From NCBI GenBank assembly GCA_029263395.1, contig JAJCXO010000176.1:1-64000 (forward strand): a stretch of DNA of 64,000 bases, written 5' to 3'. Of the stretch, positions 960 through 29,378 are shown piece by piece. A model generated the notes under the pieces. The model was given only the letters and a program-made list of their open reading frames with translations, had not been told where the DNA came from and made no database searches. Numbering within the stretch: the first letter of the stretch is position 1; each line of letters begins with the position of its first letter. Made by a program: the position numbers and the translations under genes. This stretch comes from Acidobacteriota bacterium. GTDB taxonomy: Bacteria; Acidobacteriota; Thermoanaerobaculia; Multivoradales; J023.

Positions 960-1180
960 GTCGATCCTTCTGGGGGGCTTGTGAAGTGAGGTCTTCTTGA
1001 AGCAGTCATGCGGGGAATGGAGATGTTGCACGAGGCCCTCTAGGGCGATAGGATACCTATCCCGCAGGACTATTCTATTTGATTCCCCTGCAGACCTTGA
1101 AACAACCGGTCAAAATCTCCAGGGATTTGACTAGCCCTTTCGACCCCGATCAGGCCCACCGTCTGCATAGGAGACCCTAC

Positions 1181-3565
1181 ATGCATCGTTTTGTTGCCAA
1201 AGCAGTTGCTTCGATTGCTGTCTGTGCCTTGCTGATGTCGACCGCGCCGGTCGGAGCAGTTGGCGAAGGCCCCATTCGCTTTTTGACAGGACCTCAAAAC
1301 GGTGACGCCTACGACATCGCTATGGCATATCTCACCGCCCATCGAGGGGAGCTCGGCCTGACGGCCGCCGACCTCGACGACATGGTGGTGAGCGACAAGT
1401 ATGTGAGCCGCCACAACGGCACCACCCACCTCTACCTCAAGCAGCGTTTCGAAGGTATTGAGGTGTTCAACGGCCTGATCAATATCAACGTGGCTCGCGA
1501 CGGCAGCATTATCAACCTCGGTAATTTGTTCGTTGCCAATCTGGCCGACAAGGTCAATACGCGTAGCGCTATCGTGAGTGATACTGAGGCTATCCAGCAG
1601 GCCGCGCAGCATTATGGACTGACTGCGACTAGCGAGTTGTCGTTGGTTGAATTCAAAGGCGGCGCGAATTTAGCCGCGACGTATTCGTCTGCTGGTCTGT
1701 CCCGCGACGAGATTCCTGCCAAATTGGTCTACATGCCACTCGCCGACGGTACTGTGCGCCTGGCCTGGGAGACGACGCTGCAACTAGTGAAGGGCACCGA
1801 CTGGTGGAACGTGCGGATTGATGCCGTCACGGGCGAGATGCTCTCCGAGCACAACTTCACCAGCAGCGATTCCTATCTGGTGATCCCCTTTCCGGACAAT
1901 GACAGCCCGGACGATTCCGGCGGCCAGCTTCTAGTCACCGATCCTGCTGACGCTCTGGCCTCGCCGTTCGGTTGGCACGATACCGATGGCGCTGCGGGTG
2001 CCGAGTCGATGTTGACGCGGGGTAACAACGTCAATGCGCAGGAAGATCTCGATGGCAACAACGCTGGCGGCTTTGCTCCCAGTGGTGGGGCCAGCCTCGA
2101 TTTCACCGAGGTTTTCAATCCAGCCTTGCAACCAGCCGTTGGGTCCAATCTGGGCGCGTCGATCATCAACCTGTTTTACGCCAACAACGTGATGCACGAT
2201 CTGACGTATCAATATGGTTTTGACGAGGCGGGCGGCAACTTTCAAACCAACACCTATGGCCGGGGCGGCATCGGCAATGACGCGGTCAGGGCTGACGCTC
2301 AGGACGGAGCCGAAGCGGCGCTGCCGAGCTTCAACAACGCCACCTTCGGCACACCCGGTGACGGTGCCTCGGGTGTCATGTCGATGTTCCAGTGGAAGCC
2401 GCCGGTGGATGCCATCGTGACGGTCAACACTCCGGCATCGATCGCGGGTGACTACGAAGCATCGAGCTCGAACTTTGGGCCGCAACTCGACGCCACCGGG
2501 CCTTTGACTGACGACGTTGAGTTGGCTGATGATGGTGGTGGCCCTGGCACAGCCAGCGATGGCTGCGAAGCGCTGATTGGCTTCACCGCCGGTAACATTG
2601 CTTTGATCGATCGTGGCACCTGCGACTTTTCGCTGAAGGTATTCAACGCGCAGTCAGTCGGCGCTACCGGTGTCATCATCGGCAACGATCGGCCAGGTAT
2701 TCTGCATCCGGGAGCGGGTGCCAATGCCGCCCAGGTCACGATCCCGTCGGTATTGGTCACCCAGGCCGGTTCTGACACCCTCAAGACAGGCTTGACGGGC
2801 CTCAATGCAACCATGGCTCTAGATCCTGCCGCTCCGCCTCGCCGTGACAGTGACTTCGACAACGGCATCATCGCTCATGAGTACGGACACGGCATCAGCA
2901 ATCGCTTGACGGGTGGCCCGGCTACCGCCTCCTGTCTCGGTGGCTCCGAGCAAGCCGGTGAAGGCTGGAGTGATTTCTGGGCGATGTTGTTGACGGCGGA
3001 GGCTTCCGACACGCCGGAGATGGCTCGCGGTGTTGGTAACTATGCCATTTTCGAACCGATTGATGGTCCCGGAATTCGTAACTTTCCGTACAGCACCGAT
3101 ATGGTGACCAATCCGCAGACCTATGCTGATATCGGCACCACCAACGTACCGCATGGTGTAGGCGAAATCTGGATGGCCACCGTTTGGGAGATGTATTGGG
3201 AGTTGGTCGCCAAACATGGCTTTGACAGCGACTTTTACACTGGTACCGGTGGTAACAACCTCACCATCCAGTTGGTGGTTGACGGCATGAAACTACAGCC
3301 TTGTTTGCCTGACTTTGTCCAAGCGCGTGACGCGATCTTGCTTGCTGATATGAACAACAATGCGGGCGAGAATCAGTGCGAAATCTGGCGTGCTTTCGCC
3401 AAGCGCGGTGTAGGTGTCAGCGCAATTTCCGGGGATACAGGCACACCAATAGCACCAGTAGTCGGCAACGAAACCGAGGCCTTCGACATTCCGATGGAGT
3501 GTCCGGCGGTAGGGGGCTCGATTTTCGCCGATGGCTTCGAATCCGGAGACACGTCAGCCTGGTAG
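1181..3565 (+). CDS. Secreted fungalysin-like (M36) zinc metallopeptidase with PA domain
   Basis: A 794-residue extracellular protease. The signal peptide (about 1-26) is followed by an FTP-like propeptide (about 40-230). A PA (protease-associated) insert lies near 455-535, then the gluzincin zinc site HEYGH at 566-570, with downstream Glu in GEGWSDFW near 594 as the likely third ligand. The protein ends in IFADGFESGDTSAW, a tail shared with the second peptidase in this window. The start at 1181 is chosen because AGGAG sits 8 bases upstream and a signal peptide follows directly; the frame is open back to 1079. The M36 family cleaves proteins outside the cell after losing its propeptide. A strong hairpin follows. 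The family call is sure; the substrate is not known. Confidence 0.9.
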   Translation: MHRFVAKAVASIAVCALLMSTAPVGAVGEGPIRFLTGPQNGDAYDIAMAYLTAHRGELGLTAADLDDMVVSDKYVSRHNGTTHLYLKQRFEGIEVFNGLININVARDGSIINLGNLFVANLADKVNTRSAIVSDTEAIQQAAQHYGLTATSELSLVEFKGGANLAATYSSAGLSRDEIPAKLVYMPLADGTVRLAWETTLQLVKGTDWWNVRIDAVTGEMLSEHNFTSSDSYLVIPFPDNDSPDDSGGQLLVTDPADALASPFGWHDTDGAAGAESMLTRGNNVNAQEDLDGNNAGGFAPSGGASLDFTEVFNPALQPAVGSNLGASIINLFYANNVMHDLTYQYGFDEAGGNFQTNTYGRGGIGNDAVRADAQDGAEAALPSFNNATFGTPGDGASGVMSMFQWKPPVDAIVTVNTPASIAGDYEASSSNFGPQLDATGPLTDDVELADDGGGPGTASDGCEALIGFTAGNIALIDRGTCDFSLKVFNAQSVGATGVIIGNDRPGILHPGAGANAAQVTIPSVLVTQAGSDTLKTGLTGLNATMALDPAAPPRRDSDFDNGIIAHEYGHGISNRLTGGPATASCLGGSEQAGEGWSDFWAMLLTAEASDTPEMARGVGNYAIFEPIDGPGIRNFPYSTDMVTNPQTYADIGTTNVPHGVGEIWMATVWEMYWELVAKHGFDSDFYTGTGGNNLTIQLVVDGMKLQPCLPDFVQARDAILLADMNNNAGENQCEIWRAFAKRGVGVSAISGDTGTPIAPVVGNETEAFDIPMECPAVGGSIFADGFESGDTSAW

Positions 3566-7866: not shown

Positions 7867-10800
7867 ATGCACCAAGCTAGTCCTAGTCGTCGCTTCGAGA
7901 TTGTTGTCATTGCATTGGCCCTGGTCGCGGCGCTGCCGCTGATCGCCCTCGTCGAGCCGGAAGTCACCGAGCTCCGCGCCAAGTCCTTCAGTCATCCAGA
8001 CCTCTACATCGGGAATATCTATCAGCCGGCTCCTGAAGTCGATAGCAATCGTTCGGCGCAAGATCTCGCCGATCTGGGGGTGGCTCCTAGTGCTGCCTAC
8101 ATGGATATCCGCGGTGGACGATGGGGTACCTTGATGCCAGCCCTTCCGTTGCTGCCTGGCGATGGCTTCGGTAACGAGTTGAGCTGGGACGGTTTGAACA
8201 AAGCGGCACCGACAGGTCGCGCCGAGCTCCGTACTTTGGCCTGGGATGCGTTTGTTGCATGGGTGGCTCAGCATCAATCTCAACTGGGTGTCGATATCGC
8301 CGAGTTGCAGAATCCCGGCGTGGTGACGGTGACCCGTGATGGCGACATGGTGCAGATCCACGCGCCGCGCCGGATCGATGGTGTGCCGGTGCGCGATACC
8401 TACCTCAACGCGGTGATCAGCCACGGGAACCTGAGCCTGATGGGTTTTCGGAATTGGGGCGACATCACGATTTCGCCGGTGCCGTCGATCAATACTGAAG
8501 CGGCGATCGCCGCCGTTAATGTCCACCTCGGAGACTTGGCTCAGTTGGCCACCTGGAGCAAGAACAGCCTGGCTATCATCCCGATGGCGAAAGGCACCGA
8601 TCTTGCCCAGATTGCGGTCGGTACAGGTTATGACTACCGCTTGGTCTGGGAACTGCGCCCTGCCTTCGAAGGCGACCCGGTCGGCGAGTGGGAAGCTTTG
8701 GTCGATGCTCACACCGGTGAGGTCCTTGCCCTACAAGACAAGGCGAACTACGCCAGCACCCGCGAGATCGAGGGCGGCGTTTATCCGGTTTCCAACGATG
8801 GCGTACCTCCCGATGGTGTCGAGGTGGTTTATCCGATGCCGTTCGCTGATCTCACCAATGCTGGGAATACGTTCTTCTCCGACAGTGGTGGCAACCTTCT
8901 GGCCTGCGTTGACGGTGAGATCTCGACGACGCTGACCGGGCGGTATCTCCGCATGATCGACACCTGCGGTGCGGTCTCTGAGTCGACCGCTGGTGATGTG
9001 TTGAGCCTGGGCACCAGCGGCGGCATCGACTGCACGACGCCTCCCGGTGGTTCACCCGGCAACACCCACGCTACGCGCTCCGGTTTTTACGAGATCAACC
9101 GTTCCATCGAATGGGGTCGCAGTCATCTTCCGGACAACATTTGGCTGCAAGATCAGCTGCCGGCAACGATGAACATCAACTCCAATTGCAACGCATCCGG
9201 TGGCCCTGGCGGAGTGAACTTCTTCACCTCCGGTGGTGGTTGCAGCAACACCGGCGAGATCGCGGGTGTGTTCGTTCACGAGTGGGGCCATGGTATGGAT
9301 GGCGCCGATGCCACGCCGGGTATTTCAAGTCCGGGTGAAGGTATCGCCGACATTTACGCCTCGCTGCGCCTCAATACCTCTTGCATTGGGCGCAACTTCC
9401 GTCCCGGCTCGCCTTGCGGCGGTTACGGTGACCCTTGCACCGAGTGCACCGGCGTACGCGACATCGACTTCGCGAAGCGTTCTTCGGGCAATCCCCATGA
9501 CATCGCTTTTATCGACACCTGTGGTCCCGGTAACACCAATGGACCTTGCGGTGGCTCAGTACACTGTGAAGGTGCCGTCTACGGTGAAGCTGTGTGGGAC
9601 CTCTGGCATCGCGACCTGACCGTTGCTCCCTACAACATGGACACCGATACCGCTCGTGAGGTGGCGACCCGCCTGACGTTTATTGGTTCTGGTGCGGTTG
9701 GCAATTGGTTCAACTGTAATGCCGGCTCCGGCACCGGTGACGGCTGTAACGCTGATGGTGGTTACCTGAACTACCTTGCAGCGGATGATGACGATGGCAA
9801 TCTAGCCAACGGTACGCCGCACATGACGGCAATCAACGCCGCCTTCGCACGTCACGGGATCGCTTGTCCGACACCGGCTGTGCTTGATGGTGGTTGTGCT
9901 ACCACACCGACCACGGCGCCGGTCGTCACTGCGACGGCGCGGGATCGCGGCGCCGAACTCACCTGGGGCGCGGTAGCAGGAGCTACCAGCTACCGAATCT
10001 TCCGTGGTGAGGGCGTCCACAGCTGCGACTTCGGTAAGGTTTGGGTCGCTGAGATCACCGGAACCTCCTATGTCGACTCCGGTCTCAGAAATGGCCAGGA
10101 GTACTATTACTCGGTGTTTGCGATGGGTCCCGGCGACACCTGTTACGGTCCGTCCAGCAGCTGTACTGCCGTCACACCGGTTGTTGGTTCCAACATTGGC
10201 CTCGACGCGTTGGCCAGCGGTATGGTGACGATCGTCACAGGTGACGGCGACATCTTCCTCGACAACTGCGAGGAAGCGTTGGTTGCGGTCAGCGTCTCAA
10301 ACCTTGGCAACGGTACTCAAACCAACGTGCGAATTGCCGATGTTCGGGCTCCGGACCATCCGGATGTGGTGTTCACCAGTGCTTTCCCGGTGACTGTGTC
10401 AGCGTCTTTGGCAGCCTGTGATCTGGCGGCGGGGGAAATTAGTTTCCAAGCTGATGGTCTGGCTCTGGGTGACTCGGTGTCGTTCGAGGTCGACTTCACC
10501 AGTGATCAGCTCAGCCCAGCGGTCAAGACGTTGATCCTGCCGCTCACGATTGCGGGTACTGAGGGTGATCTGATGAACTTTGCCACTCGGACCTACAGTT
10601 TCGAGGCTGATGCCGAGGACTGGGCGATAGAACAGGGTACGTTCGCTCGCACGTCGACCGGCGCTGGCAGTGGCGGTAACGGCTCTGACTTCTACACCGC
10701 TTCTTCTGGATTCCTAGCGGGGCAGTGTGATCACATCCGTTCGCCAGTGATGGTGTTGAACTCGGATTCCACCATGAGCATGTGGACCAACTTCAATATC

Positions 10801-11235
10801 GAAGATGATGCGGGTGGGACTGGGCCTTGGTACGACCGCGCCAACGTGGGGATCTACGACCCTGTTGCTGGCAGTCGCACCTTGGTCGAGCCCAGTAGTG
10901 GTCGGGACTACAACGCCTCCGGTGCCAATGGCAATTGTGGTACCAACGGGCAGCGTGGTTGGGCCGGTACGATGCAGTCTTGGGCCTCGACGACCTTTAA
11001 TGCTGCTGCGCTCGGTTCGCCGACGATCGCTGGCGATCCGGTCCAGTTAGACATCCGATATGGCACCGATGGTGGTTTACATCTGGATGGTTTCTGGTAC
11101 GACGAGGTCACTGTGACCAATGCTGACCATCAAGTGGACGACACCCAGTCCGACACGTGTGGCCCTCCGAGTGCCATCTTCTTCGATGGCTTCGAGTCCG
11201 GTGACGCGAGTTCGTGGTCGAGCGTGACCCCTTGA
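7867..11235 (+). CDS. Large secreted HExxH metallopeptidase with fibronectin III domain
   Basis: 1122 residues. An N-terminal membrane or signal segment lies at about 9-30. An FTP-like pro-region follows to about 290. The zinc motif HEWGH is at 471-475, with Glu491 and Asp495 in GEGIADIYASL giving the gluzincin third ligand. A fibronectin type III domain occupies about 682-768, then a further beta-rich region to the end. The C-terminus IFFDGFESGDASSW resembles that of the M36 enzyme at 1181. The zinc-site layout fits a fungalysin/thermolysin relative, though the pro-region and spacing differ from classical M36. A GAGGAGG ribosome site supports the start. It sits between two sulfatase-like TPR genes, which suggests a shared role in handling extracellular protein. 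Confidence 0.85.
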   Translation: MHQASPSRRFEIVVIALALVAALPLIALVEPEVTELRAKSFSHPDLYIGNIYQPAPEVDSNRSAQDLADLGVAPSAAYMDIRGGRWGTLMPALPLLPGDGFGNELSWDGLNKAAPTGRAELRTLAWDAFVAWVAQHQSQLGVDIAELQNPGVVTVTRDGDMVQIHAPRRIDGVPVRDTYLNAVISHGNLSLMGFRNWGDITISPVPSINTEAAIAAVNVHLGDLAQLATWSKNSLAIIPMAKGTDLAQIAVGTGYDYRLVWELRPAFEGDPVGEWEALVDAHTGEVLALQDKANYASTREIEGGVYPVSNDGVPPDGVEVVYPMPFADLTNAGNTFFSDSGGNLLACVDGEISTTLTGRYLRMIDTCGAVSESTAGDVLSLGTSGGIDCTTPPGGSPGNTHATRSGFYEINRSIEWGRSHLPDNIWLQDQLPATMNINSNCNASGGPGGVNFFTSGGGCSNTGEIAGVFVHEWGHGMDGADATPGISSPGEGIADIYASLRLNTSCIGRNFRPGSPCGGYGDPCTECTGVRDIDFAKRSSGNPHDIAFIDTCGPGNTNGPCGGSVHCEGAVYGEAVWDLWHRDLTVAPYNMDTDTAREVATRLTFIGSGAVGNWFNCNAGSGTGDGCNADGGYLNYLAADDDDGNLANGTPHMTAINAAFARHGIACPTPAVLDGGCATTPTTAPVVTATARDRGAELTWGAVAGATSYRIFRGEGVHSCDFGKVWVAEITGTSYVDSGLRNGQEYYYSVFAMGPGDTCYGPSSSCTAVTPVVGSNIGLDALASGMVTIVTGDGDIFLDNCEEALVAVSVSNLGNGTQTNVRIADVRAPDHPDVVFTSAFPVTVSASLAACDLAAGEISFQADGLALGDSVSFEVDFTSDQLSPAVKTLILPLTIAGTEGDLMNFATRTYSFEADAEDWAIEQGTFARTSTGAGSGGNGSDFYTASSGFLAGQCDHIRSPVMVLNSDSTMSMWTNFNIEDDAGGTGPWYDRANVGIYDPVAGSRTLVEPSSGRDYNASGANGNCGTNGQRGWAGTMQSWASTTFNAAALGSPTIAGDPVQLDIRYGTDGGLHLDGFWYDEVTVTNADHQVDDTQSDTCGPPSAIFFDGFESGDASSWSSVTP

Positions 11236-24331: not shown

Positions 24332-24763
24332 CTAATGCGACCAGACCTCAGCGTATTCCGAGGTGTTGGATTGTTGTGGGTCGCTCCCCAACACGGTGAC
24401 CCAGGCATGAAACTTCATTTCGCCATCAACTCGCATCGTGCCGATGTGGATGCGGGGTTCGAGACCGCAGCGCGACCATAGGTCGAGCAGGAGGAACGAA
24501 TGTTTCAGGCAGGGGCCGAAATTGCGTGGCGGTAGCCAGCGCAACAGACGCCAGGCGCTGCCCCCGAGGTACCGCGGATTGGTCAGGTAAGACGGCTTCC
24601 AGGGGCTGACCGCGCGCAAGCGGTCCGCAAGTTGTTCGAGGTCGTAACGCCGGTTGAGCCAACTCAGACGGATAGCAGCCCACAGCACGACCGGCAGCGC
24701 GGCGACCAGAAACACAGCTTTGGTAGCCAGCTCACCGAGGGTGGGGCGTGAGGGATTCATCAC
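24332..24763 (-). CDS. Lasso-peptide B2-like transglutaminase-fold protein
   Basis: 143 residues. A hydrophobic N-terminal segment (about 14-32) is followed by a B2-type (McjB C-terminal, transglutaminase-like) core: Cys in GPCLKHSFLL, His in FHAWVTV, and conserved R(I/H)G in the middle strand. In lasso peptide clusters this Cys protease removes the leader peptide. It overlaps the radical SAM gene by 32 bases and is last in the leftward set. Role inferred: proteolytic step on a modified peptide or protein. No lasso cyclase gene is present, so the product is not a normal lasso peptide. Confidence 0.75.
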   Translation of the reverse strand: MMNPSRPTLGELATKAVFLVAALPVVLWAAIRLSWLNRRYDLEQLADRLRAVSPWKPSYLTNPRYLGGSAWRLLRWLPPRNFGPCLKHSFLLLDLWSRCGLEPRIHIGTMRVDGEMKFHAWVTVLGSDPQQSNTSEYAEVWSH

Positions 24764-25784
24764 CGCTCGTCAATTGCTCGAAGATCGCAGCTCGCTCCTG
24801 GGCGTAGGACGATGGGCCGTAGAGATCACCATCCTCGACCAGCGCCTGCGCGTGACATCGTCCGCAGGTGGATAACTTCGAGCAGCTCTTGCAAGTGTGG
24901 AGGTTGTTGCGCCGGATGTTGCGCACTTGATTCAGCCATGGGGAATTCTCCCACACATCGCGGAACGATCGCTCACGGACGTTGCCATCGGCCCCGGGCA
25001 GGATATTGCAAGCCATCACGTCGCCTGAAGACGTGATATTGCAATAGCGGTTAGCGGCGGCGCACAGCGGGCCGTCGTGACGCGGGTCGTTGTTGTCAGG
25101 TTCCGGAACGTGGCAGCCCAAGTGAGGCCCACCGTAGTGGGGTATCAGCTCCTCCTGGGGTACCCGTAACGCTAGGGTGGAACGGTCACCGTCCTTCTTG
25201 GCCATGATGGTTGGCGAGGCTTGAAAGCCGGCTCCGATCTGTTCGGCGTAGGCCGCGATCGCATCCAACTGACGGAAGTTGTGGGTCATCATCGGTGCCT
25301 TGAGCAGGACCTCGACGTTTCGGTCCCGCAATCGTTCGATTCCAGCGAGGGTCTTGGCGAACGAGCCCGGGCGCTGCGAAATTAGCTCGAAGGTTGCCTC
25401 GTCCATCGAATAAAGGCTGATCTCGACCGCCGCAGCCAGATCGACAATGTCATCCGCAACTTGGTCCTCGATCAGAGTACCGTTCGAGAACAACCGCAAC
25501 GCGAATCCGAGTTGCCGCGCCCGCTTCGCAACGGTCAACCAATCGCGGCGCAGAAAAAGCTCACCGCCAGTGAGGGTGAGGAACATCGTACCCATGTCGG
25601 CCAGCTCTTCGAGCAAGGTCAGCAGGCGCTCGGTGGAGAGCAGATCCGGGGCTGAGAAGTCTGGGATATAGCAGTGCTGGCAGCGGAAGTTGCAATGGTG
25701 AGTGAGCTCGATCGAAACATCCATTGGGATGTTGTATTTCGCCGCCTGCACAATCAGACGGTGTTGATGCACCGGCAAGCTCAT
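24732..25784 (-). CDS. Radical SAM/SPASM peptide-modifying protein
   Basis: 350 residues. The [4Fe-4S] SAM motif is CNFRCQHC near 30-37, followed by the TGGE motif in LTLTGGELFLR. The C-terminal SPASM region has Cys-rich clusters (CAAANRYC, MACNILPG, CKSCSKLSTCGRC) for auxiliary clusters. SPASM enzymes of this kind modify ribosomal peptides. The start is placed at the ATG overlapping the kinase stop (ATGA, 25784-25781); a longer open frame reaches 26012 but lies over the kinase gene. The substrate peptide is not identified. Confidence 0.85.
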   Translation of the reverse strand: MSLPVHQHRLIVQAAKYNIPMDVSIELTHHCNFRCQHCYIPDFSAPDLLSTERLLTLLEELADMGTMFLTLTGGELFLRRDWLTVAKRARQLGFALRLFSNGTLIEDQVADDIVDLAAAVEISLYSMDEATFELISQRPGSFAKTLAGIERLRDRNVEVLLKAPMMTHNFRQLDAIAAYAEQIGAGFQASPTIMAKKDGDRSTLALRVPQEELIPHYGGPHLGCHVPEPDNNDPRHDGPLCAAANRYCNITSSGDVMACNILPGADGNVRERSFRDVWENSPWLNQVRNIRRNNLHTCKSCSKLSTCGRCHAQALVEDGDLYGPSSYAQERAAIFEQLTSGDESLTPHPR

Positions 25785-26605
25785 GCCGCGTCTCGGCTGA
25801 TGACCGGCCACACCGCTTGAGTGGGCCGAAACGCAAGCTCCCAGATGGGTACCTTGGCGAGGAGCTCGGCCAGCGATTCGAAGGTCCGCCGCATCGCCTC
25901 GGCATCGTAGGTTGGCCACAGAACTTCTTTGCGTAGACGGGCGAAGGCTTCGCCCGGATCCAGTCGCCGTCGTTGGTCCCGGGTACCGTGGCGCAGCATG
26001 TAAACGCCACAAAGCGCGGCCTTCCCTGGGCGGCTATGCCAGAAGGGAAGGGCGCCAAGGCGGGGCTCGATGCCATCGAGCCGCACTGCGGTGAGCTCGT
26101 CACACAGGGCTTCGTTGGGGAACAAGCCGGCAAGGGTAGACTTGCCACTGCCGGAGGGCCCGCTGGCCAGCCAGCCACGGTTGCCGTCGACGAAAGCCGC
26201 GCCGTGCACGATCAAGCCGTGCTCCCAGGTGGCAGACCATACTGCCTGGATCATGCGGTCGATAGGAAATGTTGCTAGCGGTCCGTCGAGTGTGCCGGTC
26301 CGTTGCCGGTGATCGAGCTCGAGCAGGAATGTGGGCGTGCTCAGATATTGCCGATGACCATCACGCGTCGAGCTCATCGGCTGTTTACGCCCGTCCATCA
26401 GCTCTTGCGGGCACAGTGATCGCGTATCCCTGAGCCGATAGACGATGTCCCACGTAATGTCCCCCGTGGCTGGCTTGGTTATCCTGAAGGCATCGTAGCG
26501 CAACGTTAACAGCTGGCGAAGTGGGTGACTGTCGCAGGTGATAGCCACCGAAATACCGCCGAAGTCATAACGATGTGTCGTCACGAAAACGGTACCTGGG
26601 AACAC
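25781..26605 (-). CDS. HPr kinase-related protein
   Basis: 274 residues. The P-loop GPSGSGKST lies near 168-176 and is preceded by LIVHGAAFVDG, the usual start of the HprK-like kinase core. The N-terminal half is not HprK and is typical of the HprK-related kinases found next to PqqD-like proteins. Such kinases sit in peptide-modification loci; phosphorylation of a precursor is known for some lasso peptides. It overlaps the PqqD-like gene upstream by 25 bases and the radical SAM gene downstream by 4 bases. Confidence 0.75.
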   Translation of the reverse strand: MFPGTVFVTTHRYDFGGISVAITCDSHPLRQLLTLRYDAFRITKPATGDITWDIVYRLRDTRSLCPQELMDGRKQPMSSTRDGHRQYLSTPTFLLELDHRQRTGTLDGPLATFPIDRMIQAVWSATWEHGLIVHGAAFVDGNRGWLASGPSGSGKSTLAGLFPNEALCDELTAVRLDGIEPRLGALPFWHSRPGKAALCGVYMLRHGTRDQRRRLDPGEAFARLRKEVLWPTYDAEAMRRTFESLAELLAKVPIWELAFRPTQAVWPVISRDAA

Positions 26606-27006
26606 AGAGGGTTTTGAGCCGGAAAGAATGCGCAGGTGGCGGCGACCTGTTCCACGGTCTCTTGCCAGAGGATCCGGGGTGGCTTGAGCTCGGCGGGCGG
26701 ATCGATGGCGATACGTTGTGGCTCCGTTGGCTCGGCACGTTGGACCAGCCCAAGCTCGACAAGCTCTTCCAAGAAAGTCTCGACCTCGGCGGGTGTTAAG
26801 GACAGCTGGTCTTCGGCATCAAGCCGCTGGTTTTTGGCACCAAGTGCGTGCACCACGGCATCGACGTCGGTCATCGTTTCGAAAGTTTGCCAGATGAAGG
26901 CGGCGGTCGGGTTGAGACCCAACATTCGTTTTTCCGCGAGGTCGAGGAGGATCGTTTCCTCGCCGATAGTTCGCCAAGCCGTCTGCTTGGCGCGTCGATA
27001 CTTCAC
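26581..27006 (-). CDS. PqqD-like peptide chaperone (RRE domain)
   Basis: 141 residues. The N-terminal 95 residues match PqqD: WRTIGEETILLDLAEKRMLGLNPTAAFIW, then a winged-helix portion ending in FLEELVELGLV. PqqD-type RRE domains hold the leader of a ribosomal peptide for the modifying enzymes. About 45 extra residues follow, which may be a linker. First gene of the compact four-gene set PqqD, HprK-like, radical SAM, B2-like. The 151-base gap upstream (27007-27157) was searched for a precursor; see rejected items. Confidence 0.8.
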   Translation of the reverse strand: MKYRRAKQTAWRTIGEETILLDLAEKRMLGLNPTAAFIWQTFETMTDVDAVVHALGAKNQRLDAEDQLSLTPAEVETFLEELVELGLVQRAEPTEPQRIAIDPPAELKPPRILWQETVEQVAATCAFFPAQNPLCSQVPFS

Positions 27007-27157: not shown

Positions 27158-29023
27158 TTACTCGCGACCCGCAGATGTGACCTGAAGCCTTCGCTCGACA
27201 TGGCGATCGACCGGCCATGGATCGCGAGCTCCAGCTTCGACCCCATCGAGGGTGAGAGTGGGCTGGCTGATGGTGCGGGCACCTTCAACAACGATCAGTG
27301 TCAATGCCAGCACAATCGGGATTGCTCGCCAACGCTGTGAGGTCTTCGCCGAGTCCGTCTGGGTCGTCTCCAGCCAGCGAATGACCGACACCACGGCCAG
27401 CGCAACCAATAAGGCCAGGACCGGAATGACACTGGCTCCGTGGCGGGCATAACCGAAGAATAGGCCAACAGCGACTACTTTGCTGGCCGCGAAACACAGC
27501 CAAGGCGTCAGGTTGTGTGCTGTGCTTTGTGGGTTGCCCTGGCGGTTGAATCCGCTCAGACCGAAGACCAACCCCCATGAGACGACTGCAAGGAACAGCA
27601 CCTGCCACACGACGAGCCCGGGACTGGCTGTCGGTACCGTCAAATCGACTGGCCGGCGTACCCCGGAGAGCCCCAACGGTAAGTTGTATCCGCCGATCCC
27701 GAGGGTGGCGCCATCCCAGAACCGACTGAGCTTACTCGCCAGTAACTGAGTGAAGACCCCGGGGTTCGCCCAAATCCACTGCAAGCCCAGGCGATAACCA
27801 TGATTGACGATCTGCAGATGCGCCGGGTAGGTGAGGGCCAAGTCCGGCGGTGGCAGACCACCGATCAGTGGTGCGGGATAACGGGAGGGTCCACCGTCAA
27901 GGGGAGGTTTCACCTCCAGGATCGAGCGGTCGAAGCCGCCCGTTGCCCGCGGATTATTGGCGAGGTAGAAGTTGAGGCCACCATAAAGCGTCACGAACGG
28001 GTGACTGGCTACCGGTTCGGGGCGATACCCGAAAGCTTCCTCCAGGATCACAAAATCATCCCCGGAGACTTCTTGTCCGCCGCGCACCAGCACCGTAGCG
28101 GCGACAAAATTCGAAGCCGTGCGACGGATGAACGCAGGTAACTGCTGACGTTCGGCTATGGCACGATCGTCCCAACTCAGCGGTGCGAGCGCAGCTTCAA
28201 CCTGTTGCCAGGCGGCTTCGGTCGCCGGATTCGGCTTCGGTTCTTCGGAGTTGAATCGCTGGATGTCACGCCAAGCTTCGAGGTGCCAGGGCAGCAGCAC
28301 CAAAGTGAAGACCCCGGCAATTGTTGCCAGGCGTCGCCAACCCTGGTTCGATCTATCCGATCGCCAGGCGATCGCCAGAAACGCCGTGGCCAGCGCGAAA
28401 TACAACACATGTTCAACCCGGGTCAAACAAGCCAGGGCATGCAGCAGGCTCCATGAACCCAGGCGTCCAACCGTTGGATGCTGACGCAGGGGCTGCCACA
28501 AGGTGAAGGTCGCGACCACCAGCAACAAGTAAGGCGTTTCGTTGTCGAGTGACGTCGAGAGCATCATCAGACCGGTGGACGCGGCGCACAGCAAGCCAGT
28601 GATCAGCGCCACGGTCGCGCCGAAAGCCTTTCGCGCCGCGACGAACACCAGCGGTGCGATCAGTGCCCCCATCACACACCACAACAACCGTAAGGTCGCG
28701 ATGCCCTTGGCCTGTCCATCCCACAACCAGGAGACTAGATACCCCGCCGCTGGCGGCCGCAGCGGAATATCGAGCTCGAATGGTTGATCATTCTGGAGTG
28801 CGTCGGCGTACTCCAGCCAAATGGCGGCATCACCCTTGTAATAGGCCGAGTAGGGCCAGGCTGCATCCGGCGTAGCCTGCCAGAACAACACCCGGAGCGC
28901 CAACGCAAGAAGGAACAGCCCAGCTGTGATGCTGTGCTCGGTTCGCCATCTCGAGCCAGCAGTGGCGCTAGAGTCTTGGCGTTTAGACCGCGGAGGTCGC
29001 GACTTTGATTTGGAGCTGCCCAT
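27158..29023 (-). CDS. GT-C family membrane glycosyltransferase (PMT/ArnT-like)
   Basis: 621 residues with 10-12 membrane helices. After a basic N-terminus and the first helix comes a first periplasmic loop with YKGDAAIWLEYADAL and LDIPLRPPAAGYLVS, the acidic loop arrangement of GT-C transferases that use polyprenyl-phosphate sugars. A long soluble loop is present near 280-420. It precedes the PqqD-like gene on the same strand and may share its transcript. An in-frame ATG at 29077 is an alternative start. The acceptor is unknown. Confidence 0.7.
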   Translation of the reverse strand: MGSSKSKSRPPRSKRQDSSATAGSRWRTEHSITAGLFLLALALRVLFWQATPDAAWPYSAYYKGDAAIWLEYADALQNDQPFELDIPLRPPAAGYLVSWLWDGQAKGIATLRLLWCVMGALIAPLVFVAARKAFGATVALITGLLCAASTGLMMLSTSLDNETPYLLLVVATFTLWQPLRQHPTVGRLGSWSLLHALACLTRVEHVLYFALATAFLAIAWRSDRSNQGWRRLATIAGVFTLVLLPWHLEAWRDIQRFNSEEPKPNPATEAAWQQVEAALAPLSWDDRAIAERQQLPAFIRRTASNFVAATVLVRGGQEVSGDDFVILEEAFGYRPEPVASHPFVTLYGGLNFYLANNPRATGGFDRSILEVKPPLDGGPSRYPAPLIGGLPPPDLALTYPAHLQIVNHGYRLGLQWIWANPGVFTQLLASKLSRFWDGATLGIGGYNLPLGLSGVRRPVDLTVPTASPGLVVWQVLFLAVVSWGLVFGLSGFNRQGNPQSTAHNLTPWLCFAASKVVAVGLFFGYARHGASVIPVLALLVALAVVSVIRWLETTQTDSAKTSQRWRAIPIVLALTLIVVEGARTISQPTLTLDGVEAGARDPWPVDRHVERRLQVTSAGRE

Positions 29024-29378
29024 GTTGATTGGCCCGCGAGGGAAGGGCCATTCTACGTTCGATCGCCGCTGAGGCAATCAGGGGCCTTTGCCGACAGCGA
29101 TGGCATGCGGCGTTGTGTTGGTGGCATAACAGCGTGTTACCATTCGAGAGTCAGAATTCTAAGTGCACAGATTTTTCGGGCGGTGGGTGAGGAGTCGACG
29201 AGCCCCACCTCGCGTCGGGGTGCAAGAGCTACAGTCTCTAAATTGGACGACAGTGTCTTTGGACTACAGTGTCTTCGATAGACTTGTTGGCCTGCTTCCC
29301 CCGAACCCGCTATCCGATAGCTGGCACATCGTCGGTCGATTGCCGGCATCCATCCCCGGACCGTATTGAATTGACCCG
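29024..29378. other. Divergent intergenic region
   Basis: About 355 bases between the leftward GT-C gene and the rightward sulfotransferase. It should hold promoters for both. I see no clear -35/-10 pair, repeat or gene. Confidence 0.4.

What the first reader, a model, noticed from the sequence alone, without database searches (positions are those of the whole stretch)
24332..27006. PqqD, HprK-like, radical SAM and B2-like genes without a precursor peptide
Four overlapping genes encode leader binding, phosphorylation, radical chemistry and leader cleavage. This is a full tool set for a ribosomal peptide, yet neither a lasso cyclase nor an obvious precursor is close. The product may be encoded elsewhere, or the target may be a larger protein. 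A GT-C transferase upstream and a sulfotransferase nearby could act in the same pathway.
Basis: partly seen in the sequence, partly recalled or inferred. Interest (0 to 1): 0.7.

Follow-up and report, generated by a model that had tools for sequence, protein, structure and literature searches.

The report
Precursor peptide fused to its carrier
The peptide that this bacterial gene set seems to lack is most likely hidden as the tail of the protein that normally binds it, a layout I found no description of, and the gene set travels with very large, apparently secreted proteins, so it may make an accessory for them rather than an antibiotic.

Summary
The four overlapping genes are real: PqqD, HprK-like kinase, radical SAM/SPASM and lasso-type B2 peptidase. 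'Without a precursor' is most likely wrong. The PqqD gene has a 34-residue tail, KPPRILWQETVEQVAATCAFFPAQNPLCSQVPFS, that looks like leader plus core fused behind the leader-binding domain. I found 21 such fusions (19 of 148 genomes of the class; 2 of 93 of a second class). In four species pairs the tail is more conserved than its domain. A model of 13 tails also finds 10 free-standing peptides beside HprK/radical SAM genes in sister cassettes, and no other ORF of 5964, though it misses nine further such peptides. AlphaFold2 gives the leader-like part a confident strand and leaves the core disordered. A small protein and a giant beta-propeller protein, both apparently secreted, are linked to the cassette in 18 and 17 of 21 loci; in the window's genome and two kin they are present but unlinked. 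Best reading: a self-presenting RiPP (ribosomally made, modified peptide), modified in cis, phosphorylated and cut free, serving that partner. Chemistry and function are inferred. New variant of a known kind.

The parts
26581..27006 (-). PqqD-type RiPP recognition element (RRE) with a leader+core-like tail fused at its C-terminus (141 aa)
   Evidence: PF05402 at residues 17-88; 20 homologues with the same fusion; AlphaFold2 model, mean pLDDT 83.8; Foldseek: lasso RREs TbiB1 5v1v/5v1u and 6jx3 with probability 1.00, best E-value 1.2e-3
26734..27006 (-). RRE domain (residues 1-91; boundary set by me)
26686..26733 (-). variable linker (residues 92-107)
   Evidence: lowest identity of the three parts in four species pairs
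26635..26685 (-). leader-like segment KPPRILWQETVEQVAAT (residues 108-124): W114 and E116 invariant, P110 nearly so in 13 fusions; predicted strand 112-117
26584..26634 (-). putative core CAFFPAQNPLCSQVPFS (residues 125-141): P129 and C135 invariant in 13 fusions; ends in Ser; cleavage site unknown
25781..26605 (-). HprK-like kinase (likely start GTG 26584)
   Evidence: invariant Walker A, H134, D169-E170 in 14 sequences; start codons
24732..25784 (-). radical SAM/SPASM enzyme (start ATG 25784; the 24732-26012 ORF is over-long)
   Evidence: PF04055 and PF13186; invariant cluster cysteines; closest solved sequence SkfB 6efn, 1.1e-30
24332..24763 (-). lasso-type B2 transglutaminase-like peptidase (likely start ATG 24760)
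   Evidence: NCBIfam NF033537 above cut-off; PF13471; conserved Cys and His; next to the cassette in 14 of 21 fused loci
27158..29077 (-). GT-C type membrane transferase upstream of PqqD; membership uncertain
   Evidence: PMT_2; in this place only in G000, G003, G004 of 21 fused loci

Best explanation
The cassette makes a ribosomal peptide whose precursor is the tail of its own recognition protein. (1) A PqqD-type domain, a linker, a leader-like segment and a putative core of about 17 residues are one polypeptide [shown by sequence and homology]. (2) The leader-like segment folds back as an added strand on its own RRE [predicted; the strand is confident, its pairing partner is inferred], which presents the core in cis. 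(3) The radical SAM/SPASM enzyme, nearest in sequence to SkfB among solved structures, crosslinks or otherwise modifies the Cys-containing core [inferred]. (4) The HprK-like kinase phosphorylates a core Ser, probably the C-terminal one where B2 is present [inferred]. (5) The B2 cysteine peptidase releases the core from the RRE [inferred]. (6) The product works with a giant, apparently secreted beta-propeller protein and its small partner, encoded next door in most genomes and elsewhere in this one [association shown, function inferred].
For: 21 fused loci: 19 of 148 genomes of the class, 2 of 93 of a second class. A model of 13 tails found 10 free-standing peptides (E 1.7e-4 to 0.025) beside HprK/rSAM genes and no other non-member among 5964 ORFs at E<=10; each of 20 column-shuffled models gave 0 hits at E<=0.1. 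It also found 8 of 8 held-out tails. Tail identity exceeds RRE identity in 4 of 4 species pairs: 91 vs 69, 89 vs 52, 64 vs 40, 67 vs 55%. AlphaFold2: residues 101-110 and 111-120 at mean pLDDT 89 and 93 with strand 112-117; 131-140 at 55. In family f20 a free precursor-like ORF lies between the small protein and HprK in 5 of 7 loci, the slot that the fused gene fills in 16 of 21 loci. The 10 free peptides have the lasso-type [YW]xxPx[ILV] anchor in 10 of 10, fused tails in 1 of 21, as expected if tethering replaces it. B2-positive loci end in Ser in 13 of 14, B2-negative in 1 of 6. Small partner linked in 18 of 21 fused loci and present, unlinked, in the other 3; giant linked in 17 of 21.
Against: No chemistry is shown. 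The tail model listed none of nine other peptides that I take for precursors: L051 2585-2767, L054 2320-2490 and 7845-8051, the end of an L125 ORF, the two f20 peptides, and the third type in L050, L052 and L121. The shuffled models missed the 13 members too, so they test order, not specificity at equal strength. 7 of 21 tails do not end in Ser, and 3 of 21 (G007, G008, G012) have only one Cys, so neither a terminal phosphate nor a two-Cys product is universal. 6 of 21 fused loci have no adjacent B2 and G012 ends at a contig edge; B2 elsewhere in those genomes was not sought. No exporter was recognised in the window proteins scanned, but none was sought elsewhere. The third catalytic residue of B2 is not clearly conserved. 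Secretion of the partners is judged by eye from their N-termini.
Confidence: 0.77

Rival explanations
1. The tail is a structural or enzyme-docking extension of the PqqD protein, not a substrate; the true precursor lies elsewhere in the genome.
For: 6 of 21 fused loci lack an adjacent B2; 3 of 21 tails have one Cys only. The window's genome has another cassette with a free-standing precursor-like ORF (G000 C285 = L050 10857-11150) that could supply peptides in trans.
Against: The tail resembles free-standing peptides in sister cassettes and the tail model hit nothing else. Its putative core is conserved although the model predicts it to be poorly ordered, which suits a substrate better than a scaffold. 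No other precursor-like ORF turned up in the fused loci with the tail model (12 relatives and the window; 8 held-out loci) or with a regular expression that does not need the aromatic anchor (window and 12 relatives); a precursor unlike these would be missed.
Confidence: 0.13
2. The enzymes modify the giant beta-propeller protein or its small partner directly, and the tail only recruits or regulates them.
For: All 14 genomes with a close radical SAM (>400 bits) encode the small partner, which 19 of 396 genomes have. The partners are kept even when unlinked.
Against: Family f20 has the same kind of partners plus a free precursor-like peptide, so a peptide seems to be needed besides them. The giants differ in their other domains: of 12 scanned, Peptidase_S8 in 4, a beta-propeller (PQQ_2) above cut-off in 11. 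No search for a leader-like motif in them was made.
Confidence: 0.1
3. A lasso peptide cluster that lost, or keeps elsewhere, its cyclase; an ordinary member of the phosphorylated lasso class.
For: B2 passes the lasso B2 model; the RRE matches lasso RREs; HprK-like kinases are known from lasso clusters (PMC10368454, passages). The genome has Asn_synthase genes elsewhere.
Against: No cyclase on the window's contig. In the maps of the window and 12 relative loci, read by eye without an Asn_synthase model, none was noticed. A radical SAM gene follows HprK in 20 of 21 fused loci, the 21st being cut by a contig end. The window's core does not fit the ring rule of lasso peptides (rule recalled).
Confidence: 0.04

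Closest known systems
LPP family (RRE + HprK-like kinase + NTP transferase + SpI peptidase, Bacillota; Popov et al. 2026, PMC13381572: abstract, sections 8 and 12 and passages read)
   Same: Kinase-containing RiPP cassette without a cyclase, with a lasso-like RRE; free-standing relatives here carry the same [Y/W]xxPx[ILV] leader anchor.
   Different: LPP has a free precursor, a signal-peptidase-like leader peptidase and a transporter; 'radical SAM' does not occur in its text. Here the precursor is fused to the RRE and a radical SAM enzyme is present.
Phosphorylated lasso peptides (paeninodin type; Bsf type, PMC10368454, passages read)
   Same: PqqD-like B1, B2 peptidase, HprK-like kinase; phosphorylation of C-terminal Ser (earlier reported cases) or Ser3 (BsfA).
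   Different: No macrolactam cyclase on this contig; radical SAM/SPASM instead; fused precursor.
Sactipeptides such as SKF (SkfB, closest solved radical SAM by sequence)
   Same: Radical SAM/SPASM enzyme acting, presumably, on Cys of a short core.
   Different: Free precursor, no kinase and no B2 in SKF (recalled); the similarity is at superfamily level.
SynChlorMet cassette (NCBIfam ScmD/ScmE/ScmF)
   Same: ScmD is the best NCBIfam hit of the PqqD protein.
   Different: Far below curated cut-offs: 22.2 vs 100 (ScmD), 90.1 vs 400 (ScmE), 76.1 vs 400 (ScmF).
Borosins (methyltransferase fused to its own core; recalled)
   Same: A RiPP core carried at the C-terminus of a protein of its own pathway and presented in cis.
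   Different: There the enzyme carries the core; here the leader-binding adaptor does.

Membership tests
RRE-dependent RiPP cassette | RRE domain of PqqD type | tested here: met
   PF05402 above cut-off; Foldseek to lasso RREs, probability 1.00
RRE-dependent RiPP cassette | precursor with leader and core | tested here: inconclusive
   conserved tail similar to free-standing peptides, fused to the RRE; substrate role not shown
RRE-dependent RiPP cassette | leader bound by the RRE as an added strand | tested here: inconclusive
   AlphaFold2 strand 112-117, block pLDDT 93; coordinates not visible
RRE-dependent RiPP cassette | modified peptide product | not testable with these tools
   needs mass spectrometry
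Lasso peptide | macrolactam cyclase of asparagine synthetase type in the cluster | tested here: not met
   13 PF00733 matches in the genome, none on contig C176
Lasso peptide | B2 leader peptidase | tested here: met
   NF033537 42.4 vs 33 bits
Lasso peptide | [YW]xxPx[ILV] leader anchor in the precursor | tested here: not met
   absent from the window's tail and from 20 of 21 fused tails
Sactipeptide | radical SAM/SPASM enzyme | tested here: met
   PF04055, PF13186; invariant cysteines
Sactipeptide | Cys-to-alpha-carbon thioether in the product | not testable with these tools
   two or more Cys in the last 25 residues of 18 of 21 tails only makes it possible
LPP family | HprK-like kinase | tested here: met
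   conserved active-site residues, although no curated HprK model is passed
LPP family | SpI-like peptidase, NTP transferase and MsbA-like transporter in the cluster | not tested
   none was recognised among the eight window proteins scanned; no dedicated search was made
SynChlorMet cassette | ScmD, ScmE and ScmF above curated cut-offs | tested here: not met
PQQ biosynthesis | PqqD and PqqE equivalogs above cut-off | tested here: not met
   PqqD 14.8 vs 46 bits, PqqE 85.1 vs 381.35 bits

The most novel reading that the evidence does not exclude
A family of self-presenting RiPPs in Acidobacteriota: the precursor became fused to its own recognition protein and lost the anchor residue that free precursors need, and the crosslinked, phosphorylated product is not a secreted weapon but a conserved accessory (cofactor, activator or inhibitor) of giant secreted beta-propeller proteins, several of which carry a protease domain.
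Probability: 0.3. Interest if true: 0.85.

Novelty: new variant of a known kind. Interest (0 to 1): 0.68.

Why it matters
RiPP mining commonly looks for short free precursor ORFs, and in one study PqqD-domain proteins were taken out of the lasso precursor set (PMC6511847, passages), so fused precursors would be missed. A 2025 survey notes that 21% of PF05402 proteins exceed the discrete RRE size without another Pfam annotation (PMC12710340, section 6); some may hide cores. The fusion also offers a natural test of what the leader anchor is for, and the tie to giant propeller proteins would give such a peptide a concrete partner to assay.

Tried and rejected
Precursor encoded elsewhere: not favoured after the tail was recognised; the tail model and an anchor-tolerant regular expression found no other precursor-like ORF in the fused loci that they were run on.

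FESGD-type C-terminal tag as the cassette's target: considered because the window proteins at 1079-3565 and 7867-11235 and the small proteins of G037 and G038 end in it. Not pursued: 9 of the 11 small-partner sequences aligned do not end in it.

GT-C and sulfotransferase as pathway members: GT-C found only in G000, G003 and G004, sulfotransferase only in G000 and G003, of 21 fused loci.

Window 7867-11235 as the giant partner: it resembles only part of the giants of some relatives; a giant with the small domain at its end is on contig C242.

Of 12 giants scanned, Pfam finds Peptidase_S8 in 4 (L042, L117, L119, L134) and no peptidase in 8, of which L043 and L135 are cut by contig ends; an HEWGHG stretch is visible in L043 and L044.

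How rows were chosen. The anchor count of 16 of 16 free peptides includes two f20 peptides picked by eye; the three third-type peptides were also picked by eye, and the f20-type peptides were found with a motif that requires the aromatic. I therefore use only the 10 found by the tail model; the Fisher value for 19 of 19 is not quoted. The co-occurrence probability ignores kinship and the fact that 9 of the 14 genomes supplied rows to the query alignments; it is not quoted.
Full report
What is there. The window lies in contig C176 of a 10.7-Mb genome. A genome of the same genus (G003) and one of the same family (G004) match, by contig number and length, the Acidobacteriota MAGs OFTM268 (JAJCXQ010000219.1) and OFTM328 (JAJCXR010000054.1). 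Minus strand, in order of transcription: GT-C (27158-29077), PqqD (26581-27006), HprK-like (25781-26605, likely start 26584), radical SAM/SPASM (24732-25784) and B2 (24332-24763). The PqqD/HprK and HprK/radical SAM junctions overlap by start and stop codons, radical SAM/B2 by about 30 bases, which suggests one operon (inference).

The tail. Pfam places PqqD at residues 17-88 of 141. The protein ends in KPPRILWQETVEQVAATCAFFPAQNPLCSQVPFS. Homologous cassettes in the same order have the same kind of tail. An alignment of 13 fused proteins, window included, gives W114, E116, P129 and C135 invariant and P110 nearly so. In a phylum sample, 44 of 396 genomes matched the first fusion model at E<=1e-8; seven (G000, G038, G350, G268, G259, G148, G422) reached positions 144-146 of 146, the others stopped earlier, mostly at the end of the domain. 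In the class, 19 of 148 genomes match the 13-row model at E<=1e-16, and in the class of G259, 2 of 93. Eight of the 19 were not in the model: all 8 have the tail, all 8 have the small protein just upstream and HprK and radical SAM downstream, and 7 of 8 have B2.

Why the tail looks like a precursor. A model of the 13 tails alone, run on 5964 ORFs of 36 sequences, hit the 13 fused proteins and 10 others, E 1.7e-4 to 0.025, all of them short peptides or ORFs ending in one, beside HprK/radical SAM genes in sister cassettes, for example YERPRILYREPLETIAALCAPSPPAKGSPGTCPRGPISS; nothing else appeared up to E=10. Twenty column-shuffled models gave 0 hits at E<=0.1, members included. Against this, the model did not list nine further peptides that I take for precursors by position and sequence: L051 2585-2767, L054 2320-2490 and 7845-8051, the end of an L125 ORF, the f20 peptides of L126 and L127, and the third type in L050, L052 and L121. 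No NCBIfam model matches the four free peptides tested. Family f20 has the same kind of partners, a close radical SAM enzyme, and a free precursor-like ORF such as MSATQNEKKKTWIRPAIEWEEDYEPVVFAASCTSEAFNCGGGAHS. It was found at 6 of 7 f20 radical SAM loci (not in G282, where HprK was not found in the stretch either); in 5 of these the order small protein, peptide, HprK, radical SAM is seen, and in G359 the stretch ends before the small protein. PqqD is a separate gene in the two f20 loci mapped, G116 and G290. In 16 of 21 fused loci the fused gene sits in that same slot between small protein and HprK; the exceptions are G259 and G422, where giant and small protein are divergent, and G000, G003 and G004, where they are unlinked.

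Selection. Between G000 and G003 the tail is 91% identical in protein and the RRE 69%, with synonymous difference 0.92 and 0.56; the other three pairs agree in direction of identity (89 vs 52, 64 vs 40, 67 vs 55%), and the linker has the lowest identity in all four. Tails are short (33-36 codons) and their synonymous sites near or at saturation, so I rest on identity and nonsynonymous difference, not on dN/dS.

Structure. AlphaFold2 on the 13-row alignment: mean pLDDT 83.8, pTM 0.76. The RRE elements are followed by strand 112-117 (blocks 101-110 and 111-120 at pLDDT 89 and 93) and helix 118-127; 121-130 is at 63, 131-140 at 55, residue 141 at 45. In solved lasso and LPP complexes the leader's residues at and after the PxL stretch extend the RRE sheet (PMC13381572, section 8). 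Foldseek's best matches are TbiB1 (5v1v, 5v1u) and another lasso B1 (6jx3), probability 1.00, best E-value 1.2e-3, none at E<=0.001.

Anchor. Lasso and LPP leaders are held by [Y/W]xxPx[LV]; Tyr and Pro replacements reduced complex formation (PMC13381572, section 8). All 10 free peptides found by the tail model have [YW]xxPx[ILV]; of 21 fused tails only that of G008 has the aromatic at that place. I read this as relaxed selection on the anchor after tethering, an inference.

Enzymes. The radical SAM cysteines and six SPASM cysteines are invariant in 10 sequences. The nearest solved sequence is SkfB, so a thioether is the first guess, not a result. The kinase keeps its Walker A, His and Asp-Glu. 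Lasso kinases are reported to phosphorylate a C-terminal Ser, or Ser3 in BsfA (PMC10368454, passages). Here 14 of 21 tails end in Ser: 13 of 14 loci with B2 and 1 of 6 without (Fisher p 0.002, kinship ignored); G012, cut by a contig end, ends in Pro.

Partners. A small protein (alignment A3) is linked to the fused gene in 18 of 21 loci, directly upstream in 16 and within 6 kb across a divergent giant gene in G259 and G422. A giant protein is linked in 17 of 21; in G458 the contig ends in the small gene. In G000, G003 and G004 the pair is elsewhere in the genome, and in G000 giant and small domain are one 1978-residue protein. Of 12 giants scanned with Pfam (L042-L045, L115-L119, L134-L136), 11 pass the PQQ_2 beta-propeller cut-off (L042 is just below), 4 carry Peptidase_S8, and no peptidase is recognised in the rest, though an HEWGHG stretch is visible in L043 and L044. 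That these proteins are secreted is my reading of their N-termini; no predictor was run. Among 396 genomes, 14 have a radical SAM match above 400 bits (the next is 314.8), and all 14 have the small protein, which 19 genomes have in all. Nine of the 14 supplied rows to the query alignments; the other five, all of family f20, also agree. The five with the small protein but no radical SAM above 400 bits are G238, G113 (251.5 bits), G126, G297 and G387.

What is known. Eight searches of the open PMC library listed no paper whose title or abstract start suggested an RRE fused to its precursor or this cassette; most listed papers were not opened, and subscription journals and preprint servers are not in it. 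I opened five: passages and section 10 of the RRE-Finder paper (PMC7470986) and passages and section 6 of its 2025 successor (PMC12710340), where the fusions I saw discussed are of RREs to enzymes or other domains; abstract, sections 8 and 12 and passages of PMC13381572; passages of PMC10368454 and PMC6511847. Borosins, recalled, are the nearest idea of a core carried by a protein of its own pathway.

Limits. All of this is sequence and prediction. 

Noticed in passing
window 1079-3565 and 7867-11235; 98 places in genome G000: Two window proteins end in an FESGDxxxW motif (...IFADGFESGDTSAW...IFFDGFESGDASSWSSVTP). A degenerate DNA pattern for it (which also admits FETGD and a few others) has 98 exact matches in the genome, the reversed control none. 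It looks like a C-terminal sorting or anchoring tag; the four papers listed for the string FESGD look unrelated. The other matches were not checked to be C-terminal.
   Followed up: partly
L005 735-1232 (G000 C138): Another PqqD fusion in the same genome: PqqD domain, then a signal-like stretch, then a Cys-rich knottin-like tail (...AQSCLANGIPCATSAQCCSGCCNSGSGKCVGMGNCLP).
   Followed up: no
L051 (2585-2767, 8026-8208), L054 (2320-2490, 7845-8051): In these sister cassettes each of two giant genes is followed by its own precursor-like peptide ending CSSGPISS. The giants end like Peptidase_C25 proteins, by eye; C25 was confirmed by Pfam only for the giant in L050.
   Followed up: partly
L050 10857-11150 (G000 C285), L052 7797-8138, L121 15280-15462: A third peptide type, YEKPQLRAINLAAEEVLAVGCKLDGGPGGPIGASCTSSSCFAAGS, between radical SAM and PqqD genes; so the window's genome also has a cassette with a free-standing precursor-like ORF.
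   Followed up: no
L053 9123-9338 (G000 C29): A lasso-precursor-like ORF (...YQKPHLIDFGDVRESTMGASPGIGDSANPALLRP) between an HprK-like gene and an ORF that overlaps an Asn_synthase match, beside an ORF of 2675 residues cut by the stretch.
   Followed up: no
L134 3310-5505 and 5839-8040: Two ORFs downstream of the giant partner gene end in tandem ANPWTD repeats; the first is a Peptidase_S8 by Pfam, the second was not scanned.
   Followed up: no
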